NCBI RefSeq assembly: GCF_000319385.1
Contig: NC_019566.1
Coordinates: 289,015-353,014, forward strand
Direction of reading: 5' to 3'
Length of the DNA stretch: 64,000 nt
Source: Candidatus Endolissoclinum faulkneri L2
GTDB taxonomy: Bacteria > Pseudomonadota > Alphaproteobacteria > Thalassobaculales > Thalassobaculaceae
Position 1 is the first letter of the stretch, and the number at the start of each line of letters is the position of its first letter. Below the pieces are notes generated by a model. It did no database searches, was not told where the DNA came from, and worked only from the letters and a program-made list of their open reading frames with translations. Both the position numbers and the translations under genes were made by a program. Below, one piece after another: positions 36,115 to 49,416 of the stretch.

Positions 36115-36669
36115 ATGGTTATTAACATGCCAAAACAATCAATAATCTGGGCACCAGATCCTATTTTAAAGGTTAATTGCACTCCAGTAGCATTTGTGGA
36201 CAAGGAGATTCTTACCCTGATGGAGGACATGCTTGAAACCATGTATGATGCGCCGGGTATTGGTCTTGCTGCCCCCCAAGTTGGTGTGACAAAGCGTGTT
36301 ATTGTCCTAGATGTTTCCAAAAAAGACAGCCAGCAAGCGCCGTTATGCTTGGCAAATCCGGAAATAATTTGGAGATCATACGATAATATTACCTATGAGG
36401 AAGGATGTTTATCATTACCTGATTTTTATACGGATGTAAAGCGCTCAGCGGCGGTGAAGGTGCGTTATGTTGATCGTAATGGTCATAAGCAAGAAATCCA
36501 TGCCAAAGGATTACTGGCAATTTGCTTGCAGCATGAGATTGACCATATTAACGGCATACTTTTAGTTGATAATATTTCCAGATTAAAAAGGAATATCTTT
36601 TTTAAAAAGATGATTAGAGTAAAAAAAATCATACGTAAAAATACGCACTCCGGAACAGTTACTCCCTGA
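36115..36669 (+). CDS. def: Peptide deformylase
   Basis: Def removes the formyl group from new proteins, using a bound metal ion. The 184-residue product has all three motifs: GIGLAAPQVG (48-57), EGCLSLP (96-102, metal ligand C98) and QHEIDH (139-144, H140 and H144 as ligands, E141 as base). The start could be ATG 36115 or 36127. fmt begins six bases after the stop, forming the def-fmt-truA operon, which pairs the formylating and deformylating enzymes. Confidence 0.96.
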   Translation: MVINMPKQSIIWAPDPILKVNCTPVAFVDKEILTLMEDMLETMYDAPGIGLAAPQVGVTKRVIVLDVSKKDSQQAPLCLANPEIIWRSYDNITYEEGCLSLPDFYTDVKRSAAVKVRYVDRNGHKQEIHAKGLLAICLQHEIDHINGILLVDNISRLKRNIFFKKMIRVKKIIRKNTHSGTVTP

Positions 36670-36674
36670 TTATC

Positions 36675-37625
36675 ATGATGTTAACGAATTGTGCGCCATT
36701 GAGTATAGCTATGATGGGTAGCTCAGATTTTTCAGTACGGATTCTTCGCTCACTGGTTGATGTTGGTCATAATATTGTTTGCGTTTATATGCCACCTTCT
36801 ACTTCTACGATAACTTACAAAAAAAAAAATAAGTTAACTTCGATTAAAGATGCTGCGATTAAGCTAGGTATATCTGTGCGCACACCATTTAATTTGCGCG
36901 ATCCGCTTGAGCAGAAAAAGTTTTTTGCTCTTAAGGTTGATCTTGCGGTGGTTGCGGCTTATGGATTGATTTTGCCAAAAGAAATCTTGAATGCACCGCG
37001 GCTTGGTAGTATTAACGTTCATACTTCTTTATTGCCTAGGTGGCGTGGAGCTGCCCCTATTCAGCATGCAATTTTAGCTGGTGATATGAAAACTGGCGTT
37101 ACTATTATGCAGATGAATTTAGGCTTGGATACTGGCGATGTGCTTCTTAGTGGTATGGTGCCTATCACGAGGAAGAGTACTTTCCAGAGCTTGGAAGGTG
37201 AATTAAGTGTTCTTGGTGCGGAGCTTATCGTTTTGGCAGTTGAAGCTTTGGCACATGGTGAGCTGATTAGTACACCGCAGGTAGAAAAAGAGGTAACGTA
37301 CGCTAAGAAATTAAAGCGTGAAGACGGCAGACTTAACTTCCACTTATCTGCCATGGTGCTTGAGCGCTTAGTTCGTGCTTTTAATCCTTGGCCAGGGGCT
37401 TTTTTTGAATATAATGGCATACCTATTAAGGTGTTTGCAGCAACTGCGCTTGATGTTGGACAAATTACTAATTTTCCTGGTACTGTGCTAGATTCAGAAC
37501 TGAAGGTCTCTTGCGCTGATGGAATATTTTTTCCGACGATTGTGCAGCGACCGGGAAAGAAGATAGTGAACGTAGAAGATTTTTTGCGTGGCTTTCCGAT
37601 TAAGCCTGGAAGTATATTGGATTAG
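36675..37625 (+). CDS. fmt: Methionyl-tRNA formyltransferase
   Basis: Fmt formylates initiator Met-tRNA using 10-formyl-THF. The 316-residue product shows AAYGLILPKEILN, the catalytic region SINVHTSLLPRWRGAAPIQ (Asn and His), GVTIMQMNLGLDTGD (catalytic Asp) and RAFNPWPGAFF in the C-terminal domain. The loop near residues 38-52, which in E. coli helps hold the tRNA acceptor end with a key Arg, reads PPSTSTITYKKKNK here instead of the PDRPAGRGKK type. Two ATGs stand at 36675 and 36678. The folate supply may connect to folD and fchA in this window. Confidence 0.94.
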   Translation: MMLTNCAPLSIAMMGSSDFSVRILRSLVDVGHNIVCVYMPPSTSTITYKKKNKLTSIKDAAIKLGISVRTPFNLRDPLEQKKFFALKVDLAVVAAYGLILPKEILNAPRLGSINVHTSLLPRWRGAAPIQHAILAGDMKTGVTIMQMNLGLDTGDVLLSGMVPITRKSTFQSLEGELSVLGAELIVLAVEALAHGELISTPQVEKEVTYAKKLKREDGRLNFHLSAMVLERLVRAFNPWPGAFFEYNGIPIKVFAATALDVGQITNFPGTVLDSELKVSCADGIFFPTIVQRPGKKIVNVEDFLRGFPIKPGSILD

Positions 37626-47965: not shown

Positions 47966-48571
47966 TTATCGCTTAACAGCATGAAACAAGTCAGATGCCT
48001 CTGTCATTAATTTAATTTTAGCGTTAGAGTAACTATTCCTTTTATCTTTTGAGCTAATTAAATTAAGATTAGCGTCAACATTAAGTAGTATAGAATTGCA
48101 AGATGTATTTAGCAAATTTGCACCTGTATAGACATCGCTAAGAATTGTTTTACGACAGATTGCAATAGACTCTACAGCAATCTTTAAGCCTGTTACACAG
48201 TGACTTGCAGCAGATATTGGTACAGCGGTAGCTTTTATTGCTGCTTCGTTTATCGCAAGCTGGCGATTATTGCTTTCTATTTCGTTGTTATTTGGTTTAT
48301 TTTTAGCTTCTATGAAGCTTGAAAAGCATTCAATATCTTCTATCAGATTAACTTTTAGCGCATCTAGTACAAATTGGCTACGCTTAATTAAATTAAGTAA
48401 TTGCCCTTTATTGTTTGTTTTTTTAATAGAAATCTTAAGTGCCATTATTACTAGTGCAATCCCCGTCGCAGCCGTATAAGCACCCACCGAGCCTCCACCT
48501 GGAACTGGATCATCACTGGCAATTGCTTCAAGGAAATTACTGATTGATTGTTCAAAAAACATGTTTGTCAT
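47966..48571 (-). CDS. fchA: Cyclodeaminase/cyclohydrolase family protein (FchA type)
   Basis: The family includes formiminotetrahydrofolate cyclodeaminase and the methenyl-THF cyclohydrolase FchA. From 48571 the product has 201 residues: FFEQSISNFLEAIASDDPVP near the start with the signature PVPGGGSVGAYTAATG (22-37). The remainder is helical and fits the family size. The ATG shares its first base with the last base of the folD stop (TGATG), so it is coupled to folD. Methenyl-THF cyclohydrolase is the likely role, converting the FolD product to 10-formyl-THF, the donor for Fmt and purine synthesis. A longer start at 48598 would reach into folD and is less likely. Confidence 0.88.
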   Translation of the reverse strand: MTNMFFEQSISNFLEAIASDDPVPGGGSVGAYTAATGIALVIMALKISIKKTNNKGQLLNLIKRSQFVLDALKVNLIEDIECFSSFIEAKNKPNNNEIESNNRQLAINEAAIKATAVPISAASHCVTGLKIAVESIAICRKTILSDVYTGANLLNTSCNSILLNVDANLNLISSKDKRNSYSNAKIKLMTEASDLFHAVKR

Positions 48572-49416
48572 CAAAAGTATCCTTGCATATTCATGCACTT
48601 CAAAAGATTGGAAAAAATAATTACTGAGGTTAATGATCCAACACCACCAGGTACGCTGCTATAGGCCATTACTTTATTAGCTGCTTCAACATCAAAATCA
48701 CCAACCAACTTATCGTTTTTGTAAGCGATCCCAGCATCAATAATTACATGCCTAGCTGTTACGTTATTAGCATTTAGTAGTCCTGGTTGACCAGTGGCTG
48801 TAAAGATAAATTTAGCTGGTCTAAGAGTATGAGCAAGATTCTTACTACGACTATGAACAATGGTTACAGTGGCATTCCGATTGATTAACATAGTCGCTAA
48901 CGGCTTACCCACAGTTGGACCACGACCTATTACAACTACTTGTTTTCCAGATAACAAATCGATTGTTTCGGCAAGTTTAATACAAGCTTGTGGTGCAGCC
49001 GGGCATATTGTTTTATTTTCTTGTCCTTGTTGAATAAGTGCTTGATTTAAAGGATTAAGTCCGTCTATATCTTTCTTTTGATCAATAATAGTCAGCACTT
49101 GGTTTTGGTCGAGGTCATTACGTATGGGAAGATCAATTATAATTCCGTGAATTGATTTATCATTGTTCGATACACGAATTAGTGCTTCAAAAGCTTCATG
49201 TTTTTTGTTAGAACCAAGCTCAATGACCTTCATAGCAATGCCCAGATTAGCTGCTTGTTTTATTTTAGAGAGGATATAAGGCTTAATTGCTGCGTTATCG
49301 CTAGCGATAATTGTCTGGATTGTTGGCTTTATACCTTTAATCTTATAAGCATCAACCTTTGCTTTTACTTCAATTTTTATTGAATCAATTATTTTATTAG
49401 CCTTGATTCTCATCAT
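48571..49416 (-). CDS. folD: Methylene-THF dehydrogenase (FolD family)
   Basis: FolD normally has two activities: methylene-THF dehydrogenase and methenyl-THF cyclohydrolase. The 281-residue product has the dinucleotide-binding VVVIGRGPTVGKP and the end SVPGGVGSLT. Active-site Tyr and Lys are kept (Y47, K51 in PYILSK), as is the Asp in DIDGLNP (D118). But the GILVQLPLP segment reads GIIIDLPIR (91-99): the Gln important for the cyclohydrolase reaction is Asp (D95). PCTP is also changed (CPAAP). Dehydrogenase activity is plausible, cyclohydrolase less so; fchA, coupled directly downstream, would supply it. Start is one of two adjacent ATGs (49416 or 49413). Confidence 0.93.
   Translation of the reverse strand: MMRIKANKIIDSIKIEVKAKVDAYKIKGIKPTIQTIIASDNAAIKPYILSKIKQAANLGIAMKVIELGSNKKHEAFEALIRVSNNDKSIHGIIIDLPIRNDLDQNQVLTIIDQKKDIDGLNPLNQALIQQGQENKTICPAAPQACIKLAETIDLLSGKQVVVIGRGPTVGKPLATMLINRNATVTIVHSRSKNLAHTLRPAKFIFTATGQPGLLNANNVTARHVIIDAGIAYKNDKLVGDFDVEAANKVMAYSSVPGGVGSLTSVIIFSNLLKCMNMQGYF

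What the first reader, a model, noticed from the sequence alone, without database searches (positions are those of the whole stretch)
47966..49416. FolD with changed cyclohydrolase site coupled to a stand-alone cyclohydrolase-family gene
FolD keeps the active-site Tyr, Lys and Asp (Y47, K51, D118), but the Gln needed for the cyclohydrolase step in bifunctional enzymes is Asp (D95 in GIIIDLPIR). The next gene, overlapping by one base (TGATG), encodes an FchA-type protein, a family with methenyl-THF cyclohydrolase members. This suggests the two activities have been split between two coupled genes, unusual in a strongly reduced genome where fusions are expected to be kept. What is seen: the substitution and the coupling. 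Known: roles of these residues and families. Inferred: the division of labour.
Basis: partly seen in the sequence, partly recalled or inferred. Interest (0 to 1): 0.6.

Follow-up and report, generated by a model that had tools for sequence, protein, structure and literature searches.

The report
Split folate enzyme pair, folD plus fchA
A reduced bacterial symbiont of sea squirts appears to make the folate cofactor 10-formyl-tetrahydrofolate with two coupled one-step enzymes instead of the usual two-step enzyme; it inherited this arrangement from free-living ancestors, and related pairs occur in several bacterial phyla.

Summary
FolD (48571-49416, -) keeps Tyr47, Lys51 and Asp118 but has Asp95 where bifunctional enzymes have Gln. 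Its TGA overlaps by one base the ATG of an FTCD_C/FchA gene (47966-48571, -), with AAGGA 8 nt upstream. The genome matches Ca. Endolissoclinum faulkneri L2. The division-of-labour reading is well supported, though only by comparison. All 64 full-length FolD genes sampled next to fchA lack the Gln; all 121 sampled without fchA nearby have it. On the tree this reduces to about two changes of state, so it is a lineage association, not 64 independent events. The pair is not a product of genome reduction: four free-living relatives in the same genus (one is Thalassobaculum litoreum) have it with Glu, and sampled sister genera have Gln-FolD and no fchA. Both symbionts lack Fhs, a second FolD and the formiminotransferase domain, but keep fmt and a purN-type gene, so FolD plus FchA is the only route to 10-formyl-THF found. 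Split FolD/FchA is already known from Clostridium perfringens and acetogens (recalled), so this is a new member of a known kind. What is less familiar is the Glu/Asp class that keeps Lys. No activity was measured, and published mutants of this Gln disagree.

The parts
48571..49416 (-). folD, class with an acidic residue (Asp95) in place of the Gln; predicted dehydrogenase-only 5,10-methylene-THF dehydrogenase, 281 aa
   Evidence: Pfam PF00763/PF02882; Y47 K51 D95 D118; AlphaFold mean pLDDT 94 and best PDB matches all FolD/MTHFD
47966..48571 (-). fchA-like FTCD_C protein, 201 aa; predicted methenyl-THF cyclohydrolase
   Evidence: PF04961 E 1.6e-37; best solved relative is methenyl-THF cyclohydrolase 7vg4; the strictly invariant columns of paired FchAs are kept
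48571..48573 (-). folD stop TGA sharing base 48571 with the fchA ATG (TGATG); AAGGA 8 nt upstream inside folD
   Evidence: junction conserved in L039 and the genus
36675..37625 (+). fmt (methionyl-tRNA formyltransferase), a user of 10-formyl-THF
   Evidence: TIGR00460 251 bits, above cut-off 201.5
36115..36669 (+). def (peptide deformylase), partner of fmt
   Evidence: TIGR00079 177 bits, above cut-off 103.95

Best explanation
folD and fchA form a translationally coupled two-enzyme unit. FolD, whose Gln partner of the catalytic Lys is replaced by Asp, only oxidises 5,10-methylene-THF to 5,10-methenyl-THF. FchA then hydrolyses methenyl-THF to 10-formyl-THF, which Fmt and a PurN-type formyltransferase use. 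Probable mechanism (inferred): a carboxylate next to Lys51 salt-bridges it and raises its pKa, so it can no longer act as the acid/base of the cyclohydrolase step while substrate binding and hydride transfer remain. The pair was already in the common ancestor of Thalassobaculum and the symbionts, probably in place of the Gln-type FolD of related genera (horizontal gain inferred). Shown: sequences, coupling, conservation, distribution and gene absences by search. Inferred: the activities, the pKa mechanism and the horizontal gain.
For: (1) Of 185 full-length FolDs, 64 of 64 next to fchA lack Gln and 121 of 121 without fchA nearby have it. (2) Of 385 alphaproteobacterial genomes searched, 8 have PF04961 above cut-off: seven have it next to a FolD with Glu or Asp, and the eighth next to an MtdA-type dehydrogenase (Mpt_N) with no FolD match. 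(3) Eleven genomes of other phyla with the pair have a single FolD, the non-Gln one. (4) Neither symbiont has a match to Fhs (PF01268), while four free-living congeners do; each symbiont has one FolD and two formyltransferases. (5) No formiminotransferase domain (PF02971) matches in any alphaproteobacterial genome with the pair that was searched. (6) FchA keeps the strictly invariant columns in both symbionts, dN/dS 0.35-0.38, while a flanking dihydropyrimidinase-like gene of the free-living relatives has no close match in the symbionts. (7) E. coli FolD Q98H keeps about 8% dehydrogenase but about 1% cyclohydrolase; K54N keeps about 19% dehydrogenase and no detectable cyclohydrolase (PMC5688156).
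Against: The tree needs only two changes for the Gln/non-Gln state and two for pairing, so independent support is small. The Gln set is not a random draw: 30 Bacillota members are the best PF00763 matches and others are nearest relatives. Bombyx mori MTHFD Q97A, and even K53A, keep cyclohydrolase kcat/Km (PMC6443876). Lys51 is kept, so some cyclohydrolase activity may remain. T. acidophilum FolD (3ngl) has Glu at the aligned position and is deposited as bifunctional; its fchA status was not checked. Methenyl-THF hydrolysis can be spontaneous (PMC5688156), so FchA need not be essential. fchA evolves faster than folD (dN/dS 0.35-0.38 against about 0.15).
Confidence: 0.77

Rival explanations
1. 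FolD with Asp95 is still bifunctional, at reduced cyclohydrolase rate; FchA only speeds the second step.
For: Lys51 is kept; Bombyx Q97A keeps cyclohydrolase activity; T. acidophilum FolD has Glu at the aligned position and is deposited as bifunctional; fchA is under weaker constraint than folD.
Against: No Gln-type FolD among 64 next to fchA; E. coli Q98H falls to about 1% cyclohydrolase; both symbionts keep fchA despite wide gene loss.
Confidence: 0.15
2. The FTCD_C protein is a formimino-THF cyclodeaminase of histidine or purine breakdown and does not complement FolD.
For: Same Pfam family; it falls below the FchA equivalog cut-off (82 against 275 bits); FTCD is a solved relative.
Against: No formiminotransferase domain PF02971 match in the symbionts, Thalassobaculum genomes or three other alphaproteobacterial carriers; coupling is to folD.
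Confidence: 0.05
3. The split arose during genome reduction by decay of the FolD cyclohydrolase site with rescue by fchA.
For: Asp is found in the two symbionts and not in their free-living congeners, which have Glu.
Against: All four free-living congeners examined have the coupled pair and an acidic residue; Asp also occurs in genomes of 4-6 Mb, G182 and G359.
Confidence: 0.02

Closest known systems
Clostridium perfringens FolD + FchA (Aluri et al. 2016, doi 10.1099/mic.0.000209; recalled from abstract, paper not held; cited for a separate FchA in PMC7219735)
   Same: Dehydrogenase-only FolD with a separate FchA; both needed to replace E. coli folD (recalled).
   Different: C. perfringens also has Fhs (recalled); the residue class of its FolD was not tested here. 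Here Lys is kept, the replacement is acidic, and no Fhs was found.
Termite-gut Ca. Adiutrix-type folD-fchA pairs (acetogens by recall)
   Same: Acidic-class FolD, Lys kept, GRGxTVG motif, fchA directly downstream (L047-L054, L091, L104).
   Different: Probably run in the reductive direction with Fhs (recalled); the symbiont has no Fhs match, so the flow should be oxidative.
Methylobacterium-type MtdA + FchA
   Same: Dehydrogenase and FchA-type cyclohydrolase are separate; seen in one alphaproteobacterial genome of the sample (G316).
   Different: The dehydrogenase is MtdA (Mpt_N), not FolD.
Bifunctional FolD of E. coli and human MTHFD1
   Same: Fold, Tyr, Lys and Asp.
   Different: The Gln that works with Lys is replaced.

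Membership tests
FolD / MTHFD family | PF00763 and PF02882 domains above cut-off | tested here: met
FolD / MTHFD family | Active-site YxxxK and the Asp of DxDG | tested here: met
   Y47, K51, D118
Bifunctional FolD | Gln at E. coli position 98 / human 100 | tested here: not met
   Asp95
Bifunctional FolD | Cyclohydrolase activity | not testable with these tools
   needs an assay
Split FolD/FchA pair | folD adjacent to fchA on the same strand, FolD without the Gln | tested here: met
Split FolD/FchA pair | No other Gln-type FolD in the genome | tested here: met
   one FolD match per genus member
Split FolD/FchA pair | Dehydrogenase-only FolD and active cyclohydrolase FchA | not testable with these tools
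   needs an assay
Split pair, class without the Lys (Phe/Met/Leu at the Gln position) | Catalytic Lys lost as well | tested here: not met
   K51 kept; belongs to the Glu/Asp + Lys class
FTCD_C / FchA family | PF04961 above cut-off and the strictly invariant columns (PGGG, D, P, SD, N) | tested here: met
NCBIfam FchA equivalog NF045657 | Score at least 275 bits | tested here: not met
   82.4 bits
FTCD (formimino-THF route) | Formiminotransferase domain PF02971 in the genome | tested here: not met
   no match in either symbiont

The most novel reading that the evidence does not exclude
The Glu/Asp + Lys class is a broad subfamily of dehydrogenase-only FolDs, found here in alphaproteobacteria, Deltaproteobacteria-labelled lineages, Spirochaetia and Bacillota, in which a carboxylate disables the catalytic Lys. 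It is co-inherited with fchA and annotated as bifunctional, and one residue predicts the split across bacteria.
Probability: 0.5. Interest if true: 0.5.

Novelty: new member of a known kind. Interest (0 to 1): 0.38.

Why it matters
If right, one active-site residue plus gene context would tell which of the many proteins annotated as bifunctional FolD are dehydrogenase-only. That affects metabolic models, antifolate target choice and the reading of one-carbon metabolism. The symbiont is a natural test: with no Fhs and no second FolD found, the pair should be its only enzymatic supply of 10-formyl-THF for purines and fMet.

Tried and rejected
Split caused by genome reduction: rejected, pair and acidic residue are in free-living congeners. 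FchA as formimino-THF cyclodeaminase: made unlikely by absence of PF02971 matches. FchA as a decaying gene: rejected, intact in both symbionts, dN/dS about 0.36, invariant residues kept. The count '64 against 121' as independent evidence: rejected, only two changes on the tree. Fusobacterium vincentii FolD (Asn/Gln at the Gln/Lys positions, no fchA nearby) looked like an exception, but an FTCD_C gene lies elsewhere in the same record. The structure model gave fold and confidence only; the Lys51-Asp95 distance was not measured.

Full report
WHAT IS THERE. On the minus strand, folD (48571-49416, 281 aa) is followed by an FTCD_C/FchA gene (47966-48571, 201 aa). The folD stop and fchA start share one base (TGATG), and AAGGA lies 8 nt upstream of the ATG inside folD. 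FolD keeps Tyr47, Lys51 and Asp118; the Gln of bifunctional enzymes (E. coli Gln98, human Gln100) is Asp95. A model from an alignment of locus sequences has mean pLDDT 94, and its best PDB matches are all FolD/MTHFD.

WHOSE GENOME. The window lies in a single contig of 1,481,191 bases. Its size, a 1.52 Mb sister (G001, contig) and a genus shared with Thalassobaculum litoreum DSM 18839 (L046, a contig of the same length as that of G002) match Candidatus Endolissoclinum faulkneri L2 and L5 (1.48 and 1.51 Mb, 57% and 56% coding, T. litoreum closest; PMC3851785).

HISTORY. All six genomes of the genus examined (two symbionts, four free-living of about 5 Mb) have the pair; free-living members have Glu, symbionts Asp. 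No FchA match was found in the other sampled genera of the family, and their FolDs that were read have Gln. So the split predates genome reduction. In the free-living relatives the pair lies among amidohydrolase, dihydropyrimidinase-like and carbon-nitrogen hydrolase genes; the close dihydropyrimidinase-like neighbour has no close match in the symbionts (best about 29% identity), yet the pair stays.

COMPARATIVE TEST. A scan of genome contigs with the FolD alignment gave 80 loci; every FolD next to fchA had Glu or Phe, every other had Gln. A Bacillota sample (178 of 300 genomes with PF04961) was read at 60 selected fchA or FolD places plus the 30 best FolD matches. Of 185 full-length FolDs combined, 64 of 64 next to fchA lack Gln and 121 of 121 without fchA nearby have it. 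Two classes appear: Glu/Asp with Lys kept (42), and Phe/Met/Leu with Lys lost (22). The class without Lys also occurs in Collinsella aerofaciens next to fchA, annotated there as bifunctional. In 385 alphaproteobacterial genomes, 8 have PF04961 above cut-off; seven pair it with an acidic FolD and one with an MtdA-type enzyme. The tree, built without the two trait columns, needs two changes for each trait, so this is an association of lineages.

PATHWAY CONTEXT. Neither symbiont has a match to Fhs; four free-living congeners do. Each symbiont has one FolD and two formyltransferases: fmt, next to def in the window, and a purN-type gene beside a PurM-like ORF (the PurM-like reading is from inspection of the ORF, not a family search). 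No formiminotransferase domain was found. FolD plus FchA is therefore the only route to 10-formyl-THF found; PurU, PurH and other enzymes were not searched individually.

SELECTION. Between L2 and L5 dN/dS is 0.14-0.15 for folD, 0.14 for argB and 0.35-0.38 for fchA. fchA is constrained but less so, which fits either looser structural needs or partial dispensability through spontaneous hydrolysis.

BIOCHEMISTRY FROM PAPERS. E. coli Q98H: about 8% dehydrogenase, about 1% cyclohydrolase; K54N: about 19% dehydrogenase and no detectable cyclohydrolase; the hydrolysis can be spontaneous (PMC5688156). P. aeruginosa and human: Gln positions the catalytic Lys (PMC3338484). Leishmania paper: Lys56 and Gln100 act together and Lys must be unprotonated (PMC3368264), which is what a neighbouring carboxylate would oppose (inference). 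Against: Bombyx Q97A and K53A retain cyclohydrolase kcat/Km (PMC6443876).

VERDICT. Observation confirmed; division of labour likely (0.77) but unassayed; 'unusual because reduced' not supported. New member of a known kind (split FolD/FchA, known from C. perfringens and acetogens by recall), in the less familiar class that keeps Lys and has an acidic residue.

Noticed in passing
L166:1375-2379 (G050) and G057:C1:722536-723351: A divergent FolD-like clade with Gln at the Lys position and Glu at the Asp position; in G057 it lies between fhs and a canonical FolD. Function unknown.
   Followed up: partly
L303:3001-3828 (Fusobacterium vincentii): FolD with Asn and Gln at the Gln and Lys positions and no fchA nearby; an FTCD_C gene lies elsewhere in the same record.
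   Followed up: partly
L307:3989-5478 (Collinsella aerofaciens): fchA directly upstream of a FolD annotated as bifunctional although Gln is Phe and Lys is Ala; likely a mis-annotation shared by many such genes.
   Followed up: partly
L040-L043 (free-living congeners): folD-fchA sits among amidohydrolases, a dihydropyrimidinase-like gene, a carbon-nitrogen hydrolase and (L041) a DctM transporter, suggesting a link to hydantoin or pyrimidine breakdown.
   Followed up: partly
window 47966-48571: fchA has about two and a half times the dN/dS of folD or argB between the two symbionts while keeping its strictly invariant residues.
   Followed up: partly
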